From Rhodoplanes serenus (lineage in GTDB: Bacteria > Pseudomonadota > Alphaproteobacteria > Rhizobiales > Xanthobacteraceae), in the NCBI GenBank assembly GCA_945897515.1, contig CAMDFO010000034.1:1-46548 (forward strand): 46,548 nucleotides of DNA. The letters are read 5' to 3'. A program made the position numbers and the translations under genes. Positions within the stretch are counted from its first letter, which is position 1; the number at the start of each line of letters is the position of its first letter. Shown here in pieces: positions 929 to 20,307 of this stretch. The notes under the pieces were generated by a model. It ran no database searches. It was not told the DNA's origin and worked only from the letters and a program-made list of their open reading frames with translations.

Positions 929-3397
929 ATGGTGTCGAGTACATCCCGCGATAACGCCGTTCGGTCGGTAAAAAGGTCAATAAAGGGCGCGTTGCGCATG
1001 ATACTGTGGGTACGGTTGCTTCGGGGCCTAGGCCTAGTTGGCATGGTCCTCGGCGGGATCGTTGTTGGCGCTGCGGTCACATCCGTTGCGACGGCTGATT
1101 TCGCCATAGCGCAAAGCGGCAGCTTGGTCGTCGTCCAGGGCAACCGGCGCGTCGAAGCCGACACCATTCGCAGCTATTTCCGCGTCGGCGGACGCGAGCG
1201 GATGGACGCCGCCACCATCGACGACGCGCTCAAGTCGCTCTACGCCACCGGACTGTTCCAGGATGTCCGCATCACCCCGTCCGGCGGCCGGCTCGTTGTC
1301 ACCGTGGTCGAGAACCCGGTGCTCAATCGTGTCGCGTTCGAGGGCAACAAGAAGCTCAAGGACGAGCAGATCTCCGGCGAAGTGCAGTCGAAGCCGCGCG
1401 GCACGCTGTCGCGTCCGACCGTGCAGGCCGACGTCCAGCGCATCGTCGACATCTACCGGCGCAATGGCCGGTTCGATGTGCGGGTCGAGCCTAAGATCAT
1501 TGAGCTTCCGAACAATCGCGTCGATCTCGTCTACGAGATCAATGAAGGCGACAAGACCACGGTCCGGGAAATCAAGTTCATCGGCAACAACAACTTCTCC
1601 GCGGGGCGCCTGAAAGACGAAATCAAGACCGCCGAGAGCTTCCCGATTTTCTCTTTCCTGCAGACCGCCGATATCTATGATCCCGACCGCATCGAAGCCG
1701 ACCGCGACCTGATCCGCCGCTTCTATCTGAAGAAGGGTTACGCCGACGTCCGCGTCATTTCTGCGGCCGCTGAGTTTGATCCGAGCCGTAAAGGCTTCGT
1801 CATCATCTTCACCATCGAGGAGGGCGAGCGTTACCGGTTCGGCCCCGTCGAGGTGCAATCGAACGTTCCCGCGGTCGACGGACAGTCTGTCCGGTCCACC
1901 CTGCGAACCAGCAGCGGAGCGGTCTACAACGCCGAGGCGGTCGAGAAGTCGGTCGAAAATCTGTCGATCGAGGTGGCGCGCCGCGGCTATCCCTTTGCCG
2001 TGGTGCGGCCGCGTGGCGACCGCGACCCCTCCAGCGCGACGGTCGGTCTGGTCTACGTGATCGAAGAAGGTCCGCGCGTCTACATCGAGCGGATCAACGT
2101 CCGCAACAACACCCGCACCCGCGATTACGTGATCCGCCGCGAGTTCAACGTTGCCGAGGGCGACGCCTATAACCGCGCGCTCATCGACCGGGCCGAGCGT
2201 CGGCTGAAGAATCTCAATTACTTCAAGAACGTCAGGATCACCAACGAGCCAGGATCGGCGCCCGATCGCATCGTGATCAACGTCGATGTCGAAGAGATGC
2301 CGACCGGCGAGCTGTCGCTTTCCGGCGGCTACTCGACCGCCGACGGCTTCATGGCGGAGATCAGCGTCGGCGAGCGCAATCTGCTCGGGCGCGGCCAATA
2401 TGCCCGCGCGTCGGTGCAGTACGGCCAGCGCACCCAGGGCTTCGAGTTGTCGTTTGCGGAGCCATTCTTCCTGGGCTACCGCCTCTCCGCCGGCGTCGAC
2501 CTGTTCGCCAAGCAGACGCTGGCCTCCAGCTACTATTCGTACGACAACAAGCTGTTCGGCACCGGACTGCGCGCCGGCTTCGCATTGAGCGAAGAAATGA
2601 GCGTGCAGATGCGCTATTCGATCTACCGGCAGGAAATCACGCTGCCGAGCCAGTTGAACAACTGCTCGTCCACCACGCTGGCCACATGCTACGGCGACGG
2701 CGAGGCCTCGTTGGCCGTGCGCAAGGAGCTCGCGCAAGGGCCGGTGCTGGTTTCACTGGTCGGATATACCGCAGTCTACAACACCCTCGACAGCAACAAG
2801 AACCCGACCAGCGGCGCACTCCTGGAGTTCAAGCAGGACCTCGCCGGCGTCGGCGGTCACGTGAACTTCCTGCGCACGACGGTCGACTCGCGGAACTACT
2901 ACGAGCTGTTCGCCGACGTTGTCGCGGTTGCCCGCCTGCAAGCCGGTCACATGACCGGCTGGGGCGGCAAGGACCTGCGCATGCTCGACCATTTCCAAAA
3001 GGGGCCGGATCTCGTGCGTGGCTTCGCTCCCGGCGGATTCGGGCCGCGCGATCTCACGCCCAACACCGCACAGGATGCGCTGGGCGGCTCGATGTTCTGG
3101 GGAGCGAGTCTCGAAGCTCAGACGCCGTTCAGCTTCCTGCCGAAGGACGTCGGGATCAAGGGCGCCGTCTTCGCCGATGCGGGCTCGTTGTGGAACTACC
3201 GCGGACCGACAAACTGGGTGCAGACCGGTGAAACGCTTACACTTGCGGATTCGAACGCGATCCGCGCGTCGGTCGGCGCCGGCATCATCTGGAATTCGCC
3301 GTTCGGCCCGCTGCGGTTCGATTATTCCGTCCCGCTGATGAAGGAAGGCTACGACCGGGTACAGCAGTTCCGGTTTGGCGGCGGAACGCGTTTCTAG
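929..3397 (+). CDS. bamA: Outer membrane protein assembly factor BamA (Omp85)
   Basis: BamA is the central outer-membrane component that folds and inserts beta-barrel proteins. The 822-residue product has a basic N-terminus and a hydrophobic export signal (about residues 25-60, ending near AIAQS), then five POTRA repeats from about 62 to 400 ([69 protein letters not shown]). A 16-strand barrel follows. The VRGF lid-loop motif is present ([12 protein letters not shown]), and the protein ends in Phe (FGGGTRF), as outer-membrane barrels do. A GGGGAAAG sequence lies about ten bases before the ATG at 929; an ATG at 998 would give a more typical signal peptide length and is a fair alternative. Length is normal for alphaproteobacteria. 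The neighbours rseP and lpxD place it in the envelope biogenesis operon. Confidence 0.97.
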
Positions 3398-14913: not shown

Positions 14914-16046
14914 ATGGTCGAGTGGGGCAGGGGTCGCGGCCGGGTGGGGACCTGGCCGCCGAGCGGTGCGTCGCGTCCGCGGGCCTTGGCCTGGATCGGC
15001 GGCTCGGCGGGATTCAGGCAGATTGCAGCGGCGCGAATGCGCCAATGGGCACAGGCCGACACCGGTCCGGGACGGCTTCTGCCGTGGCTGCCGGTCGCAT
15101 TCGGTTTCGGGATCGTCGTCTATTTCACCGCGGAGCGCGAGCCGGCCTGGTGGGCCGCCGTGGCGCTTGCGGTCGGGTGCGCGACCGTAGCTTTCCTGGC
15201 GCGTAAGCGGCCCGTGGCGTTCCCGGTCGCGCTTGCGCTGGCGGCGGCCGCAGCCGGATTTGCCACCGCGACCCTCAAGAGCGTGCGCATCGCGCATCCG
15301 ATCCTGTCGGCGCCCGCGTTCAGCGTGGACATCGCGGGCTATGTCGAAATGCGCGAGGAGCGCGAACGCTCCGACCGGATCGTGGTCCGCGCGCTCAAGC
15401 TCGAAGGCGCGCGCCTCAACGAGAAGCCCGAGCGCGTCCGCGTATCGGTGCGCAAGGGCACGGCGCCGCCGGTCGGCAGCTATGTCGCGTTCAAGGCGCG
15501 GCTCAATCCGCCGCTCGCGCCGCTGCGCCCCGGCGGCTACGACTTCGCCCGCGACATGTATTTCCAGAGCATCGGCGCGACCGGCTTCGTGCTGGGCGCA
15601 GTGCGGACCGCCGAGCCGCCGGAACCGCCCGGCCTGTGGCTTCGCTATATGTCCGCGATCCAGGGGTTGCGCGACGCCATCGACGGCCGCATTCGCGCGG
15701 TGGTGCCGGGCGACCAGGGCGCCATCGCCTCCGCGCTGATCACCGGCAAGCGCGACGCGATCTCGGCGCCGGTCAACGAGGCGATGTATGTGTCGAGCCT
15801 CGCGCACGTGCTGTCGATTTCCGGCTACCACATGGCAATCGTCGCCGGCGTCGTGTTCTTCACCTTCCGCGCGGTGTTCGCGCTGATGCCTGGGTTCGCC
15901 AACCGGCGGCCGATCAAGAAATGGGCCGCGCTCGCGGCGCTGGGGGCCGCGGCGTTCTACCTCGTGCTGTCGGGCGCCGAGGTGGCGACGCAGCGCGCCT
16001 TCATCATGACTGCGATCGTGCTGATCGGCGTGATGGCCGACCGCCC
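14914..16046 (+). pseudogene. comEC: comEC, 5' part, interrupted by an IS1595-like element
   Basis: ComEC forms the inner-membrane channel that imports single-stranded DNA in natural transformation. This 5' part encodes about 377 residues: a basic tail, two or three membrane helices near the start (LLPWLPVAFGFGIVVYF; WAAVALAVGCATVAFLA), a soluble OB-like domain (DUF4131 region, about residues 140-225), and the start of the Competence domain with SALITGKRD and HVLSISGYHMAIVAG. Reading then runs into the insertion and stops at 16080 after eleven foreign codons. The frame resumes at 19170: removing the element and one copy of the 8-bp duplication joins GAC-CGC-CC to G-GCC-TTG (DRPAL) in frame. 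As it stands, the protein lacks half of its membrane domain and is very probably non-functional. Confidence 0.93.
16039..16046. repeat. Target-site duplication, left copy
   Basis: GACCGCCC directly precedes the left end of the element. The identical octamer at 19162-19169 directly follows the right end. Eight bases is the usual duplication size for the IS1595 family. Confidence 0.95.
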
Positions 16047-16072
16047 CGGTATTATGGCGCAAACGCCACAAG
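16047..16072 (+). repeat. Left terminal inverted repeat of the IS1595-like element
   Basis: 26 bp beginning CGGTATTATGGCGC and ending CCACAAG, identical to the reverse complement of 19136-19161. Inside it is a small palindrome TGGCG-CAAA-CGCCA. Just inward, at 16088-16123, is a longer broken stem: CCCAC and CTGTC pair with GACAG and GTGGG. Confidence 0.95.
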
Positions 16073-16153
16073 CGTCTTAGGGCAAGTCCCACATCTGTCT
16101 TCACAGGAGGACAGTAAAGTGGGAAAGGCGGCGCTCGGCGCGCGAAGTGGCTG

Positions 16154-16849
16154 CTATTTTAGAAAAACCCGCCTTGGCGCAACGACCACTTGCAGCACCC
16201 CCTCTGGAACGGATGGGCATGTTGCGAAGCCGGTCGAATCTGCACCAATCGATTCCCACAGCGCATCGGTCAGAGCGAGCCACGGCGTTTTTCGGTCCTT
16301 CGGCAACACGCCCCGATGCGGCATTTCTTCTTGTTCTTCATTGGACACCGAGTGCGAGAGGACCAAAACGCCACCGAGGTTTGCGCCGCACATTTTTACA
16401 GACGCTGACGTTTCGCCCAAATATCCGTGGTCCCACTCGGCTGCCTTCAACGCCCCCATTATACTCATTGCGAGAAAAAACGATTCAGGATCGTCGGGAG
16501 CGTGGGAAACCAAGACGCGCTTCTTTGCCACCCCCTTCCGCGTCTCTTCCAATCTGATTTCCGCGAGGGCAGTTCGTTCGTTCGCTTTTGCGGCGCTTTC
16601 GTTGGCTTTGGCGGTTTCCAGTTCAAGGGCGGCCACCTTTTCCACCGACTGTTCTCTTAACAGGTCCCAGTGGTGCTCTTTGACGATGCCCATCCAAATG
16701 ATGACGACAGTCGCGGAGAATCCGACCAGCAAGGTGAATGCCAACACAAAACTGGCGCGGTCAAACCACTTGGAAGCGGTATCCAGCGGCGGCCACGGCG
16801 AATTTCCGGCGTGGTATGCGATTTCAGTCATTGCGGCGATGGTCATCAT
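16154..16849 (-). CDS. Passenger membrane-anchored coiled-coil protein of unknown function
   Basis: Unrecognised protein of 231 residues. One strong membrane helix is at about 33-57 (SFVLAFTLLVGFSATVVIIW). A charged, Ala/Glu-rich coiled coil follows at about 62-107 (LETAKANESAAKANERTALA), and then a soluble domain with alternating strands (KKRVLVSHA, GVLVLSHS, VLQVVVAP) that could be Rossmann-like. The overall plan is a short cytoplasmic start, one anchor, a stalk and a globular head. It is downstream of the DUF6471-like gene (54-bp gap), probably in one transcript. The start may be Met1 at 16849, Met2, or Met7; no clear ribosome site decides. A frame on the opposite strand covers the same bases but reads as Ser/Arg-rich shadow. 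I do not know what it does. Confidence 0.7.
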   Translation of the reverse strand: MMTIAAMTEIAYHAGNSPWPPLDTASKWFDRASFVLAFTLLVGFSATVVIIWMGIVKEHHWDLLREQSVEKVAALELETAKANESAAKANERTALAEIRLEETRKGVAKKRVLVSHAPDDPESFFLAMSIMGALKAAEWDHGYLGETSASVKMCGANLGGVLVLSHSVSNEEQEEMPHRGVLPKDRKTPWLALTDALWESIGADSTGFATCPSVPEGVLQVVVAPRRVFLK

Positions 16850-16903
16850 TGCGGGGATCGGGCTGACGCTAATTTACACAGCAATAGCTGCAAAAAACCG
16901 GCG

Positions 16904-17143
16904 CTAAATCTCCTCCAATGCTACGCCCTCCAATTCGAGTGCCGCAAGGCAGGCCAGGAAGAACGTGGCCGGGAAAGTACCCCGTTTCAGCTTGTTCGTG
17001 ATCGAGGCTTCGGTTTCGTTGTGGCCATGCTTCTTGAGGCGCTTGGCTAGCTCCTCATACGTGACCTCGGCTTCCCGCAGTTTGTGTTTGAGAAAGGCAG
17101 CGGCGCGGGCGGCCCACTCCTCCTCGGTTTTGATGAATCCCAT
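16904..17143 (-). CDS. DUF6471-like small protein, candidate repressor of the element
   Basis: Seventy-nine residues from the ATG at 17143, which has AGGAAA seven bases upstream; a GTG at 17158 would add five residues but removes that ribosome site. The sequence (KTEEEWAARAAAFLKHKLRE, then TYEELAKRLKKHG, ETEASITNKLKRGTFPATFF) is all-helical. It resembles DUF6471 proteins, which look like Cro/Xre-type helix-turn-helix folds (recalled, unsearched). It diverges from the transposase across an intergenic region with four operator-like repeats, the first of which overlaps its own leader. A role as autorepressor and repressor of transposase expression is inferred from this layout. Confidence 0.75.
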   Translation of the reverse strand: MGFIKTEEEWAARAAAFLKHKLREAEVTYEELAKRLKKHGHNETEASITNKLKRGTFPATFFLACLAALELEGVALEEI

Positions 17144-17151
17144 CCGGTTTC

Positions 17152-17237
17152 CTATCACATCTGAGGGCTATCATATCTGATAGATTGCCGTTGACAACCC
17201 CCTACCTATCACATATGATAGCTTTCATAAACGATAG
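17152..17237. promoter_or_regulatory. Divergent promoters with four 16-bp operator repeats
   Basis: Four palindromic 16-mers lie as two abutting pairs: 17152-17167 CTATCACATCTGAGGG, 17168-17183 CTATCATATCTGATAG, 17206-17221 CTATCACATATGATAG, 17222-17237 CTTTCATAAACGATAG. A near-consensus sigma-70 promoter towards the transposase is TTGACA (17191-17196), 17 bases, TATGAT (17214-17219), with its -10 inside the third repeat. On the other strand, TTGTCA (17197-17192), 16 bases, TATGAT (17175-17170) could drive the DUF6471-like gene, its -10 inside the second repeat. Binding here would block both promoters. Confidence 0.8.
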
Positions 17238-17245
17238 GTAAGCAG

Positions 17246-18226
17246 ATGGCCCAACACTTCCTCCTCTCCAAAGCCGCCAAGACCCTTTCGCTGGCGTCCG
17301 TATTCCAGATGAAGGACTCCGAGGCGGAGACGGCGTTCCGGTGCATCCGTTGGGCCGATACGAACGGCGAGCCGGTTTGCTCCCATTGTGGTGGCGTTGA
17401 TGCTTACGACTGCCGCCGGTTGAAGGGTGCCCCACGCTTCCGCTGCCGGGCCTGTAAAAAGGATTTCACCATTACGAGCGGCACGCTGTTCGCCTCTGCC
17501 AAGCTGCCCCTCCGCTGCTACCTCGCCGCCATCGCGATCTTCTGCAACGAGGTCAAGGGCAAGTCCGCCCTGGCGCTCTCCCGCGATTTGAACGTGTCTT
17601 ACAAGTGCGCCTTCGTCCTGTTGCACAAGCTGCGCGAGGCGATGGCTGCGGAATTGAAGGCGCGCGTCGTTGGCGGCACAGGCAAGGTCGCTGAGGTCGA
17701 TGGCGGCTATTTCGGCGGCTACGTGAAGCCAGCCAACCGTAAGGAATTTCGCCGGGACCGTCGCTTGGCAGAGAACCAGAACCACAAGCGCAAGGCCGTC
17801 GTCATCATTCGCGAGCGGAACGGCAATTCAATCCCGGCGGTATTCAAGACCGAGTCGCAGGCCATCGATTTCATCAAGGCGTACGTCGCCACTGGCACGG
17901 TCGTCAATGCAGACAGCGCCGCCGGTTGGGACCCGCTGCACGCCAAGTTTGAAATGAAGCGCGTCAACCACGAGGAAGCCTATTCGATGGATGGCGCTTG
18001 CACCAATTGGGCCGAAGAGTTTTTCAGCCGCATGCGCCGCGCCGAGATCGGCCACCATCACCACATCGCCGGTCAATATCTGCTGCGCTACGCGCAAGAG
18101 GCGTCATGGCGGGAGGATAACCGTCGCCAATCGAATGGCGATCAAGTGCAGCGCGTTGCTGGCTTGGCCCTGAAAAGCGGCAAGTCGAAAGAGTTCACCG
18201 GCTACTGGCAACGCCATGACGCATAG
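17246..18226 (+). CDS. IS1595-family (ISXO2-like) transposase
   Basis: The 326-residue protein has an N-terminal zinc ribbon with Cys45-x2-Cys48 and Cys67-x2-Cys70 (CSHC...CRAC), a helical DNA-binding stretch (about 95-135), and the ISXO2-like DDE domain. Acid residues are Asp152 (EVDGGYFGGY), Asp223 (NADSAAGW), and Asn254 with Glu257 (CTNWAEEFF), the D-D-N/E arrangement of this family. HHHHIAGQYLLRYAQEASWR near the end is also typical. All key residues are present, so it may be active. The ATG at 17246 lies about 20 bases past the predicted transcription start with only a weak ribosome site. Its end overlaps the next gene by 11 bases. Confidence 0.95.
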   Translation: MAQHFLLSKAAKTLSLASVFQMKDSEAETAFRCIRWADTNGEPVCSHCGGVDAYDCRRLKGAPRFRCRACKKDFTITSGTLFASAKLPLRCYLAAIAIFCNEVKGKSALALSRDLNVSYKCAFVLLHKLREAMAAELKARVVGGTGKVAEVDGGYFGGYVKPANRKEFRRDRRLAENQNHKRKAVVIIRERNGNSIPAVFKTESQAIDFIKAYVATGTVVNADSAAGWDPLHAKFEMKRVNHEEAYSMDGACTNWAEEFFSRMRRAEIGHHHHIAGQYLLRYAQEASWREDNRRQSNGDQVQRVAGLALKSGKSKEFTGYWQRHDA

Positions 18227-18626
18227 CCCTCTGATGTACGGCCTGATCGAGCTTCACCGCAGGCTTGATGGCGAGGTGCGGAAGGGCAGAGAGAACCTTG
18301 CCCATGTCCGCGCCGTGATCGAAATTGTCTCGCCTGGCTTCGACGTTTCGACCATCCGGCCCGTGAAGGCCTACAAGGAAAATCCCTGGTTCCAGCGTGG
18401 CGAGGTAATTCTCGAAGCCCTAAGCGTTTTACGTGAGGCCCATATGCCACTGTCGCAAACGGAAATCGTAAAGCGAATGCTGGCCAAGCGCGGCGTTACT
18501 GATCCGACCTCAGCGGATTTGAGGAATATGCGGAACGCACTTCACGCAACGCTGCCGCGCTATGAGGGGAAAGCGGTCAAATCAACAGGCGAACGTCAGA
18601 TGCGGCGTTGGTCGGTCATTACTTGA
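18216..18626 (+). CDS. Passenger protein overlapping the transposase end, unknown function
   Basis: The 136-residue product is unrecognised. Its ATG at 18216 lies inside the last codons of the transposase (11-base overlap), so translation is probably coupled. The N-terminal half is helical (LIELHRRLDGEVRKGRENLAHVRAVIEIV). The second half (FQRGEVILEALSVLREAHMPLSQTEIVKRMLAKRGV, then a basic KAVKSTGERQMRRWSVI) has the pattern of a winged helix-turn-helix. A DNA-binding accessory of transposition or a regulator would fit, but that is inference. It is followed by a strong palindrome that may end the transcript. Confidence 0.75.
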   Translation: MTHSPLMYGLIELHRRLDGEVRKGRENLAHVRAVIEIVSPGFDVSTIRPVKAYKENPWFQRGEVILEALSVLREAHMPLSQTEIVKRMLAKRGVTDPTSADLRNMRNALHATLPRYEGKAVKSTGERQMRRWSVIT

Positions 18627-18657
18627 CGTGCTAAAATACAAACGGCCCGCCGATTGG

Positions 18658-18694
18658 GTACTGGGTCAGTTTGACCTTCAAACTGACCCAGTAC
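18658..18694. repeat. Perfect 17-bp-arm palindrome flanked by 10-bp direct repeats
   Basis: Arms GTACTGGGTCAGTTTGA (18658-18674) and its exact reverse complement (18678-18694) surround a CCT loop. The decamer CCGCCGATTG occurs on both sides, at 18647-18656 and 18694-18703. It sits between two converging passenger genes, where a hairpin could stop transcription from both sides, though it lacks T runs. The flanking direct repeat also fits a tiny insertion or the fused ends of a deleted element. Confidence 0.85.
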
Positions 18695-18752
18695 CGCCGA
18701 TTGCCGTCGGGGGGGGGCGTGTACCAATCAGACCGGACTAAATCCAGCCCCG

Positions 18753-19025
18753 TCATGGGGGGCTCCTATCGTCATCGATTTCCCACTCAATTCGCGCTTG
18801 GCTTCCTTGGTCCTTACAGGAGCCACTTACAAAGCCGACGGATTTGCCGCAGCCTGGACATGGGCGCCCGTTCGCTCCCTCTGAATCGAACCCGAAACCA
18901 GCCACTACGAAAACCTTCGAACACACCGGGCACGAAAAAGCGACGTTGTTACCGTGCCAATCCGCATTTGCGTCAGGCGATAAGCCGGAACGGTATTTGT
19001 TGGGATCGAGAAAACGCGTTGCCAT
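18753..19025 (-). CDS. Passenger small zinc-ribbon protein, unknown function
   Basis: The 90-residue product carries two CxxC knuckles, CPVC near residue 32 and CPGC near residue 56, with the SCPVCSKVF...GRPCPGCGKSVGF layout of a zinc ribbon. The ATG at 19025 was chosen because GGAGG stands five bases before it; an in-frame ATG at 19037 would add four residues and place that ribosome site inside the gene. The C-terminus is acidic (EWEIDDDRSPP). It runs towards the transposase operon and is the last gene before the right end of the element. It is not a transposase fragment as far as I can see. Confidence 0.7.
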   Translation of the reverse strand: MATRFLDPNKYRSGLSPDANADWHGNNVAFSCPVCSKVFVVAGFGFDSEGANGRPCPGCGKSVGFVSGSCKDQGSQARIEWEIDDDRSPP

Positions 19026-19135
19026 GGTTGCCTCCATTTATTTCGCGTCCTTGAGGAACGCGATCCGGGGAGGCTTAAGCAAGGCCTTGACGGGGGATTG
19101 GGAGGATTAGGGCAGAAATCCTATCGGATTTTAGC

Positions 19136-19161
19136 CTTGTGGCGTTTGCGCCATAATACCG
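19136..19161 (-). repeat. Right terminal inverted repeat of the IS1595-like element
   Basis: 26 bp ending GCGCCATAATACCG, the exact reverse complement of 16047-16072. Immediately inside is a small stem AAATCC-TATC-GGATTT (19116-19131) that could dampen transcription across the end. Confidence 0.95.
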
Positions 19162-19169
19162 GACCGCCC
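19162..19169. repeat. Target-site duplication, right copy
   Basis: GACCGCCC, identical to 16039-16046, immediately after the right inverted repeat. Confidence 0.95.
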
Positions 19170-20307
19170 GGCCTTGACGCTGCGCACGCTTGCGGTGGCG
19201 GCGTTCGCGGTGCTGCTGATCGCGCCTCAATCGGTGGTGCATCCGAGCTTCCAGATGTCGTTTGCGGCAACGCTTGCGCTGGTCGCGGCCTACGAGCGCG
19301 GGCTGCCGTGGAGCGCCAACGCCGACAGCACGGTCGGGGCGCGCGTGGCGCTGTGGGGCGGACGTGAGATCGCCGGCTTGGTGCTTGCGTCGCTGGTCGC
19401 CGGGCTCGCGACCACGCCCTATGCGGCTTACCACTTCCACCGGCTGGCTCCCTACGGCGTCATCGCCAACCTGATCGCCATGCCGATCGTCTCGCTATGG
19501 GTGATGCCGGCCGGCCTGCTGGCGCTGATCGCGATCCCGTTCGGCTTCGACGGCGTGCTGTGGCGGCTGATGGGCGACGGCATCGGATGGATGATCGCAG
19601 TGGCGTTGTGGGTCACCAGCCTGCCGGGCTCGGTCGGCCGGATGGCGGCGTTCGGCACCGGGCCGCTACTGCTCGGCAGTCTGGGGCTCGTCGTGCTGTG
19701 CCTGCTGAAAACGCCGCTGCGCTGGTGCGGAGCCGTGATGATTGTGCTGGCCAGCGTGCTGGCGATCCGTGCTCCGCTGCCGGACGTGCTGATCTCCGCC
19801 GACGGGCAGGCCATGGCGGTCCGCGGCGCCGACGGGCGCCTCGCGATCCATCGGACCGGCAGCGACGCCTTTACGATCCGGGAGTGGCTCGCAGCCGACG
19901 GCGACGCGCGCCTGCCGGCCGATCCGGCGCTGCGGGCCGGTATCGCGTGCGACGACGCCGGCTGTGTCGCAAGGCTGCCCGACGGCAAGCTGGTGTCCCG
20001 GGTGCTTGCGCCGGACGCATTCGAGGAGGATTGCCGCCGGGCGCTCGTCGTGGTGACGACCCGCGATGCGCCGCCGGCCTGCGAGGCGCTCACGATCGAC
20101 CGCAAGGTTTCACGCGCCAGCGGCGCGCTGTCGCTGCAGCGGTCAGGAGGTGGATTCGAGGTTACGGCCGCCCGGCCGGTGGGACAGGACCGGCCCTGGG
20201 CACGGGCTCGGCCGGAACCAGTCGAGGGTGCGCGGACACCAGCCATCACCCGGCCGACGCCGCGCGATGCCATTCCGCGAGCGGAGGACTTGGAAGCGGG
20301 CGACTGA
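19170..20307 (+). pseudogene. comEC: comEC, 3' part, separated by the IS1595-like element
   Basis: This continues the comEC frame after the insertion. It encodes the rest of the Competence domain: LTLRTLAVAAFAVLLIAPQ, then the family motif HPSFQMSFAATLALVA, and several helices to about LLCLLKTPLRW. A soluble C-terminal region of about 180 residues follows (DVLISADGQAMAVRG...) that resembles a reduced form of the usual metallo-hydrolase tail without its metal motifs. Added to the 5' part through the split codon, the full protein would be 756 residues. It has no ribosome site or start of its own, so it is probably not translated. It ends five bases before the convergent lexA. Confidence 0.92.

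What the first reader, a model, noticed from the sequence alone, without database searches (positions are those of the whole stretch)
16047..19161. Cargo of four uncharacterised genes on an IS1595-like element
Besides the transposase, this 3.1-kb unit carries a membrane/coiled-coil protein, a DUF6471-like protein, a transposase-coupled protein and a zinc-ribbon protein, all inside perfect inverted ends. That is a lot for an IS1595. Two of them (the DUF6471-like and coupled proteins) could be regulators of transposition, leaving the membrane protein and zinc protein as possible payload. This is the best candidate in the window for an undescribed system.
Basis: inference. Interest (0 to 1): 0.7.

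Follow-up and report, generated by a model that had tools for sequence, protein, structure and literature searches.

The report
Jumping gene aimed at DNA-uptake genes
A 3.1-kb jumping gene has split this bacterium's DNA-uptake gene comEC, relatives of it sit at exact sites in this and two other DNA-uptake genes, and a small protein that it carries likely picks those sites, which would stop the host from taking up DNA.

Summary
The unit is real: an IS1595-family element (16047-19161) with 26-bp perfect inverted ends and an 8-bp target repeat, inserted in comEC. It is not "transposase plus four passengers". In 60 delimited elements, the "coupled" protein (here C1) recurs in 57 and DUF6471 in 49; five 1.6-kb relatives hold only transposase + C1. 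The other two genes fill slots: the left slot usually holds a membrane protein (37 of 44), the right slot varies. DUF6471 faces palindromes over the transposase promoter and is likely its repressor; four relatives have an HTH_3 protein and another palindrome instead. The surprise is the target: 36 of 99 loci abut one of six exact sites, 19 of them in natural-transformation genes (dprA 11, comM 6, comEC 2). On trees of the same 30 elements, target class needs 6 changes on C1 (minimum 5), 10 on the transposase, 13 on DUF6471. C1 (predicted coiled coil + winged helix) is therefore likely a target selector, a role like that of TnsD/TnsF in Tn7-like elements, but in a one-transposase IS. Against: about half of the elements lie elsewhere, 14 of them within labelled C1 clades, and nothing was tested at the bench.

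The parts
14914..16046 (+). 5' part of the interrupted comEC gene
   Evidence: Pfam Competence 3.1e-25 and DUF4131 1.6e-20; ComEC_Rec2 3.5e-17
16039..16046 (.). target repeat GACCGCCC, left copy
   Evidence: identical to 19162-19169
16047..16072 (+). left inverted end, 26 bp
   Evidence: perfect complement of 19136-19161
16154..16849 (-). left-slot cargo: 231-aa protein, one transmembrane stretch, long helix (coiled coil), C-terminal alpha/beta domain (predicted)
   Evidence: (transmembrane), AlphaFold2 pLDDT 84; no family in Pfam, PHROGs or PADLOC; 32 database relatives
16904..17143 (-). DUF6471 protein, likely repressor of the transposase promoter (longer frame from GTG to 17158 also open)
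   Evidence: Pfam PF20075 7e-23; next to an IS1595 transposase for 17 of 28 hits in 385 genomes
17152..17238 (.). array of palindromic sites: CTATCATATCTGATAG 17168-17183, CTATCACATATGATAG 17206-17221, partial copies 17152-17164 and 17223-17238; -35 TTGACA 17191-17196 and -10 TATGAT 17214-17219 inside the array
   Evidence: read; repeats D1 and I2; motif in 56 of 66 relatives with DUF6471 beside the transposase
17246..18226 (+). IS1595-family DDE transposase, 326 aa
18216..18626 (+). C1, 136 aa, overlaps the transposase stop; likely target selector (predicted helical N-terminal part + winged helix)
   Evidence: in 57 of 60 elements; AlphaFold2 pLDDT 90; target association
18753..19037 (-). right-slot cargo: zinc-ribbon-like protein, 94 aa (90 from the second ATG)
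   Evidence: CPVC/CPGC motifs conserved in the 9 relatives fetched besides the own entry (CPTC in P0054, CPMC/CPLC/CPSC in P0035 and P0036); no family over cut-off
19136..19161 (-). right inverted end, 26 bp
19162..19169 (.). target repeat GACCGCCC, right copy
19170..20307 (+). 3' part of comEC
   Evidence: Pfam Competence 4.7e-31; in frame with the 5' part

Best explanation
The unit is an IS1595-family element inserted in comEC whose small coupled protein C1 likely selects the target, whose DUF6471 protein is predicted to repress the transposase, and whose membrane and zinc-ribbon genes look like exchangeable cargo. Likely working: DUF6471 sits on the palindromes over the transposase promoter and keeps it quiet (inferred). 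When relieved, transposase and C1 would be made together; here their genes overlap (shown). C1 would bind a conserved stretch of a host gene through its winged helix and bring the transposase there (inferred). The element joins at one exact 8-bp site per target class, in either orientation (shown from the sites). Each of the main C1 clades goes with its own site: dprA, comM, comEC, two places in a glycosyltransferase gene, one unnamed gene (shown as an association, not as cause). In this genome the insertion has split the only comEC found (shown), which would end DNA uptake and so protect the element from removal by transformation (inferred, by the intragenomic-conflict argument of PMC4774983).
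For: C1 is core: 57 of 60 delimited elements, and the only companion of the transposase in five 1.6-kb elements. 36 of 99 loci abut one of six sites; 28 of the 60 delimited elements are among them; the same 8 bp is hit within a class. Orientations at dprA 3 same/6 opposite, comM 2/2, GT2a 1/5, comEC 1/1. Target class on trees of the same 30 elements: C1 6 changes (minimum 5), transposase 10, DUF6471 13, shuffled means 17.6, 17.6 and 17.7; one clade for dprA or GT2a rejected for the transposase (p 1.7e-6, 4.9e-34) and for DUF6471 (0.0025, 7.7e-5). Nearest neighbour has the same target: C1 28, transposase 20, DUF6471 15 of 30; L027 and L041: transposase 89%, C1 18% identical, different targets. 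The left-end gene does not follow the target (6 of 16; C1 14 of 16). C1 is under purifying selection between window and L021 (dN/dS 0.19). DUF6471: CATATNYG upstream in 56 of 66 with it beside the transposase, 108 sites against 6.6 in shuffles; four elements without it have an HTH_3 gene in its place and a CAAC..GTTG palindrome that none of the 70 elements with DUF6471 has.
Against: 32 of 60 delimited elements are at none of the six sites. In the C1 tree, 14 rows without a label lie inside labelled clades (L029, L031, L088; L004, L019, L044; L042, L052, L083; L012, L016, L037, L038, L063); for some the flanks were not resolved, L031 looks like a decayed dprA site by my reading. Out of sample, three further loci lay in a recurrent target gene and their nearest labelled C1 named the right gene each time, but only L139 is at the exact site: L134 is in comM about 64 codons away, L146 in the glycosyltransferase about 36 codons past GT2b; L142, L145, L147, L153 and L154, with labelled neighbours, showed no recurrent gene in the stretch held. 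The comEC class has only two members. Transposase distance also carries some signal (partial r -0.34). Fold hits of C1 are weak (best E 0.18). Ten of 66 DUF6471 elements lack CATATNYG. No biochemical data.
Confidence: 0.68

Rival explanations
1. The transposase itself recognises the target; C1 is a helper (for example for synapsis or regulation) that has co-evolved with it.
For: Transposase distance keeps some association with target after C1 is allowed for (partial r -0.34), and the transposase has its own zinc ribbon.
Against: Transposases 89% identical (L027, L041) use different targets with C1 18% identical, and transposases 53% identical (L009, L055) share comM; one clade per target is rejected for the transposase.
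Confidence: 0.14
2. C1 follows the target only because elements at the same site recombine through shared flanks, or because insertions were inherited; C1 has no part in targeting.
For: In most elements C1 lies beside the right end; some dprA elements (L033, L041, L078) are close kin in one orientation.
Against: The left-end gene, as near to a flank, does not follow the target (6 of 16). Both orientations occur at four sites. In the window and L021 C1 is not at the end. The exact 8-bp recurrence itself needs an explanation.
Confidence: 0.1
3. An ordinary cargo-carrying IS1595 element whose payload matters, for example a defence module of membrane and zinc-ribbon protein; the comEC site is incidental.
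For: Relatives carry BstA (L022, 6.7e-124), a type IIG restriction enzyme (L027), a type II methyltransferase (L043), and HicA-, Fic- and IrrE-like genes; the left slot's longest frame has a transmembrane stretch in 37 of 44, right slot 7 of 38, flanks 18 of 123.
Against: Window proteins give no convincing PADLOC hit (best 0.0047). A length-matched set of 47 flanking host genes also gave PADLOC hits, so enrichment is not shown. comEC is hit at the same codon in L021 with other cargo.
Confidence: 0.08

Closest known systems
IS1595 family of insertion sequences (cargo-carrying 'transporter IS' subgroups ISNwi1/ISNha5: recalled, no text seen)
   Same: DDE_Tnp_IS1595 transposase with zinc ribbon, inverted ends, 8-bp target repeat, extra genes.
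   Different: A recurrent C1 gene whose clade goes with the target, a DUF6471 repressor with operator array, two cargo slots, insertion at exact sites in transformation genes.
Tn6022 and Tsy elements whose TnsF targets comM (PMC10293859, passages seen)
   Same: A dedicated protein aims the element at comM, at the Walker B motif; our comM elements cut FLDELPE^F, which I read as the same motif.
   Different: No TnsA/B/C, TniQ or tyrosine recombinase found here; one DDE transposase plus a ~140-aa protein without a Pfam match; both orientations; also dprA and comEC.
Mobile elements that interrupt competence genes (AbaR islands in comM, prophages and islands in com genes: PMC4774983, PMC11472951; comEC in Piscirickettsia: PMC12955456; passages seen)
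   Same: Disruption of transformation genes, read as conflict between element and host.
   Different: In Piscirickettsia the elements lie at non-identical positions; here one element family hits exact sites in three transformation genes.
XRE/HTH_3 repressors of mobile elements
   Same: Divergent small gene beside the transposase with palindromes between; HTH_3 replaces DUF6471 in L010, L015, L042, L085.
   Different: DUF6471 itself does not match HTH_3 in Pfam.

Membership tests
IS1595 family | IS1595/ISXO2-type DDE transposase with zinc ribbon | tested here: met
   PF12762 1.3e-35, PF12760 2.6e-7, NF033547 131.6 bits (cut-off 75)
IS1595 family | inverted ends and 8-bp target repeat | tested here: met
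   26-bp perfect ends, GACCGCCC twice; exact repeat in 56 of 60 delimited elements, where it was also a search criterion
ISNwi1/ISNha5 subgroup (recalled) | transposase closest to the named subgroup elements | not tested
   no ISfinder sequences held; one paper search by name gave no relevant text
Tn7-like transposon with target selector | TnsA/B/C-type transposition genes and TniQ/TnsD | tested here: not met
   window genes are one DDE transposase and four others without such a match
Tn7-like transposon with target selector | selector protein of the TniQ/TnsD or TnsF family | tested here: not met
   C1: no Pfam family at E 1 but DUF4777 0.12; in 63 members only weak winged-helix matches (HARE-HTH in 15, best 2.1e-4)
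Tn7-like transposon with target selector | a dedicated protein decides the target (works like) | tested here: inconclusive
   association only: C1 tree 6 changes against 10 and 13; no experiment
DUF6471 (PF20075) | profile match over the curated cut-off | tested here: met
   80.7 bits, cut-off 26.8
Known anti-phage defence system | match of the window's cargo to PADLOC-DB | tested here: not met
   membrane protein none; zinc protein 0.0047 to a candidate model

The most novel reading that the evidence does not exclude
A family of simple one-transposase insertion sequences carries swappable ~140-residue winged-helix selectors, each steering much the same transposase to one exact codon of a conserved host gene. 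Its favourites are the DNA-uptake and transformation genes dprA, comM and comEC. It thereby disables the pathway by which the host could cure it, while hauling exchangeable cargo under a DUF6471 repressor.
Probability: 0.6. Interest if true: 0.9.

Novelty: new variant of a known kind. Interest (0 to 1): 0.8.

Why it matters
Simple insertion sequences are usually thought to need little but a transposase and to have loose target preference. A compact protein selector that exchanges between near-identical transposases would be a natural and very small system of targeted DNA insertion. It would also be a case of mobile DNA attacking natural transformation at three different genes, which makes the intragenomic-conflict idea testable in alphaproteobacteria. 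It further gives DUF6471, a domain of unknown function, a testable role as transposase repressor with a named operator.

Tried and rejected
Phage-defence payload: PADLOC found BstA, type IIG restriction and methyltransferase genes in relatives, but a length-matched control of 47 flanking host genes also gave hits (18 families; one of them, ShosA, is by my recollection DprA-like), so I claim no enrichment. Four separate passengers: rejected. Function of the membrane protein: AlphaFold2 gave an alpha/beta C-terminal domain, Foldseek nothing better than E 0.24. Solved-structure searches with the DUF6471 and C1 profiles gave only weak matches. PHROGs: no match for three window proteins, 0.0095 for the zinc protein. 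Viral contigs: 21 pattern matches, none a relative of the zinc protein. Rfam on 12 loci showed only tRNAs. Shared flanks as the cause of the C1-target link: tested with the left-end gene, not supported. A DNA consensus common to all sites: none seen by eye in the listing.

Limits and dropped rows. Delimited set: L001 (duplicate of the window) and L003 (other ends) left out; the automatic pair for L039 replaced by hand; L038, L046, L073 added by hand without an exact repeat. L005 left out of trees and counts (same element as L050). Gene calls are my scripts, not a gene finder; left slots often have long frames on both strands, so the left-slot counts are of longest frames. The operator count used order-1 random shuffles; 3 of its 15 elements without DUF6471 (L037, L071, L082) start inside the transposase gene and are poor controls; without them it is 1 of 12 (L091). 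The CAAC..GTTG motif was chosen after seeing the four rows. The orientation script found no frame for the GT2b sites and L065. Mantel and careful trees use 30 of the 36 labelled elements, those with all three proteins; comEC then has one row, so 29 is the best possible neighbour score; in the 16-row control 14 is the best possible. L021 is in the 68-row tree but not in the 30.
Full report
Observation. The unit 16047-19161 is a complete IS1595-family element. It has 26-bp perfect inverted ends and the 8-bp repeat GACCGCCC on both sides, and it splits comEC; the two halves read through in frame when joined in a script. The draft genome (88.9% complete) shows no other comEC; it has dprA in an open frame of 413 codons and a Mg_chelatase gene of the ComM type.

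Relatives. A scan of genome contigs gave 81 relatives of the transposase, 80 kept; 16 of 385 genomes of the class, the own one included, have one at E 1e-60 or better. I delimited 60 elements, the window included, by ends and repeats; 56 have an exact 8-bp repeat, which was also a search criterion. Clustering of their frames and profile searches show a core: transposase cluster in 58 of 60, C1 in 57, DUF6471 in 49; of the other clusters one is in 6 elements, one in 3, the rest in 1 or 2. Five elements of 1,576-1,637 bp (L068, L075, L076, L077, L081) have only transposase and C1, so C1 is not a passenger. In 56 of the 57 C1 lies on the strand opposite to the transposase, mostly by the right end; in the window, L021, L061, L007 and L019 it follows the transposase on the same strand.

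Cargo. L021 has a transposase 91% identical and the same transposase-C1 overlap, but other sequence outside with sharp borders; dN/dS between the two is 0.11 for the transposase and 0.19 for C1. The left slot's longest frame has a transmembrane stretch in 37 of 44 elements, against 7 of 38 right slots and 18 of 123 one-kilobase flank pieces. Twenty-eight left-slot proteins of 27 elements align as one very divergent family: transmembrane part, coiled-coil-like stretch, then RAY, N-G-TPA and FG motifs; no Pfam family is shared between them. The window's left protein has another C-terminal part; its 32 database relatives share the N-terminal half and vary behind it. The right slot is varied: type IIG restriction enzyme in L027, BstA in L022, methyltransferase in L043, IrrE-like in L025, Fic-like in L026 and others. 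A control of 47 flanking genes also matched PADLOC models, so I claim no enrichment.

DUF6471 as repressor. PF20075 has 28 hits in 385 genomes; 17 have an IS1595 transposase within about 1.5 kb, among them 17 of the 18 strongest; of the other 11, four hold stop codons. Upstream of 66 transposases with DUF6471 in the divergent place, CATATNYG occurs 108 times (200 random shuffles: mean 6.6, maximum 14), in 56 of 66; in 4 of 4 with DUF6471 farther off; in 1 of 15 without it, or 1 of 12 after three poor controls are dropped. Related elements share ancestry, so these counts are not independent. A natural control says more: L010, L015, L042 and L085 lack DUF6471 in the stretch held, carry an HTH_3 protein (over cut-off) in the same divergent place, and have a CAAC..GTTG palindrome that is in 0 of the 70 elements with DUF6471 and 0 of the other 11 without it. 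In the window the -10 box lies inside one palindrome.

Targets. Reading the flanks showed that sites recur. With flank searches, 36 of 99 loci (window and L002-L100 without L005) abut one of six sites: dprA 11, a glycosyltransferase-2 gene at two places (GT2a 8, GT2b 7), comM 6, comEC 2, and an unnamed gene with DIFAIEACGS 2. Of the 60 delimited elements 28 are among them. Within a class the same 8 bp is duplicated, for example GAYTAYCC in 6 of 6 GT2a sites shown. Pfam on unjoined flank pieces gives DprA (7.7e-71), Mg_chelatase/ChlI (ComM) and glycosyltransferase 2; none for the unnamed gene. The comM site is FLDELPE^F, by my reading the Walker B motif that TnsF targets (PMC10293859, passages). 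Elements lie in both orientations at dprA, comM, GT2a and comEC, which means repeated insertion unless inversion between the ends is invoked. The left end of L021 is off its contig, so its repeat could not be checked.

C1 follows the target. On a 68-row C1 tree the six classes (31 rows) need 5 changes, the minimum; on a 76-row transposase tree 10. On careful trees of the same 30 elements: C1 6, transposase 10, DUF6471 13; shuffled 17.6-17.7. One clade for dprA or GT2a is rejected for the transposase (p 1.7e-6, 4.9e-34) and for DUF6471 (0.0025, 7.7e-5), while both are single groups on C1 (support 90/79 and 100/100). Nearest neighbours share the target in 28, 20 and 15 of 30 by C1, transposase and DUF6471; partial Mantel correlations are -0.67 (C1 given transposase) and -0.34 (the reverse). 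L027 and L041 have transposases 89% alike, C1 18% alike and different targets; L009 and L055 have transposases 53% alike and share comM. The left-end gene does not follow the target (6 of 16; C1 14, transposase 11, DUF6471 9 on the same rows).

Out of sample. Of the C1 loci found later in the 385 genomes (26 hits), three outside the tree rows lie in a recurrent target gene: L139 (comM, exact site), L134 (comM, about 64 codons before the site), L146 (the glycosyltransferase, about 36 codons past GT2b). Their nearest labelled C1 names the right gene in 3 of 3, the exact site in 1 of 3; for L134 the very nearest C1 rows are unlabelled. L142, L145, L147, L153 and L154, with labelled neighbours, show no recurrent gene in the stretch held.

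What C1 may be. Its AlphaFold2 model (63-row alignment, pLDDT 90, pTM 0.65) has a helical N-terminal part and a C-terminal winged helix by my reading of the elements; Foldseek hits include several DNA-binding winged helices but are weak, best E 0.18; 15 of 63 members weakly match HARE-HTH. The role of selector is an inference from the association.

Against. Thirty-two of 60 delimited elements are at none of the six sites, and 14 unlabelled rows lie inside labelled C1 clades. So either C1 biases rather than dictates, or some sites were not recognised: L049 and L089, sister C1 rows, both start 6 bp behind a tRNA-Arg gene, and by my reading the flanks of L036, L045, L056, L073 and L087, in one C1 clade, hold short palindromes.

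Literature. Insertions in comM, other com genes and comEC are known and have been read as conflict over transformation (PMC4774983, PMC11472951, PMC12955456: passages). Searches of the open-licence library, of which I saw listings and the passages named, showed no description of a target selector in IS1595 elements, and no paper with the word DUF6471. Subscription papers are not covered; the IS1595 review literature is recalled, not seen.

Noticed in passing
window 16154-16849: Compared with its closest database relative P0002, the membrane protein lacks about 17 residues in frame behind the coiled-coil part.
   Followed up: no
window 18647-18705: An 18-bp perfect hairpin (18657-18674 / 18678-18695) is flanked by the direct repeat CCGCCGATTG, as if a tiny palindromic element had inserted behind C1; its arm occurs only here in the genome.
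   Followed up: partly
L010, L015, L042, L085: Regulator and operator appear swapped together: HTH_3 protein instead of DUF6471, CAAC..GTTG palindromes instead of CATATNYG sites.
   Followed up: partly
L033, L041, L078: DUF6471 has moved to the right end, divergent from C1; the palindromes remain at the transposase.
   Followed up: no
L049:4548-4631 and L089:4581-4664: Two elements with sister C1 rows both start 6 bp behind a tRNA-Arg gene, a possible further target class.
   Followed up: partly
L064:1-7927: A second element of the family (transposase 2037-2987, minus strand) lies directly beside the delimited one, at the same GATATCTT site.
   Followed up: no
L030, L039, L043: Second IS1595-type transposases lie inside cargo slots, as nested or captured elements.
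   Followed up: no
P0031: A database protein joins a DprA N-terminal piece (RLIRSDNVGPR) to the window-type membrane protein, as if such an element in dprA had been truncated or misassembled.
   Followed up: no
L021:212-436 (-): Between DUF6471 and the operators of L021 lies a small CPIC...CPNHG zinc-finger-like frame, unlike the window's zinc protein.
   Followed up: no
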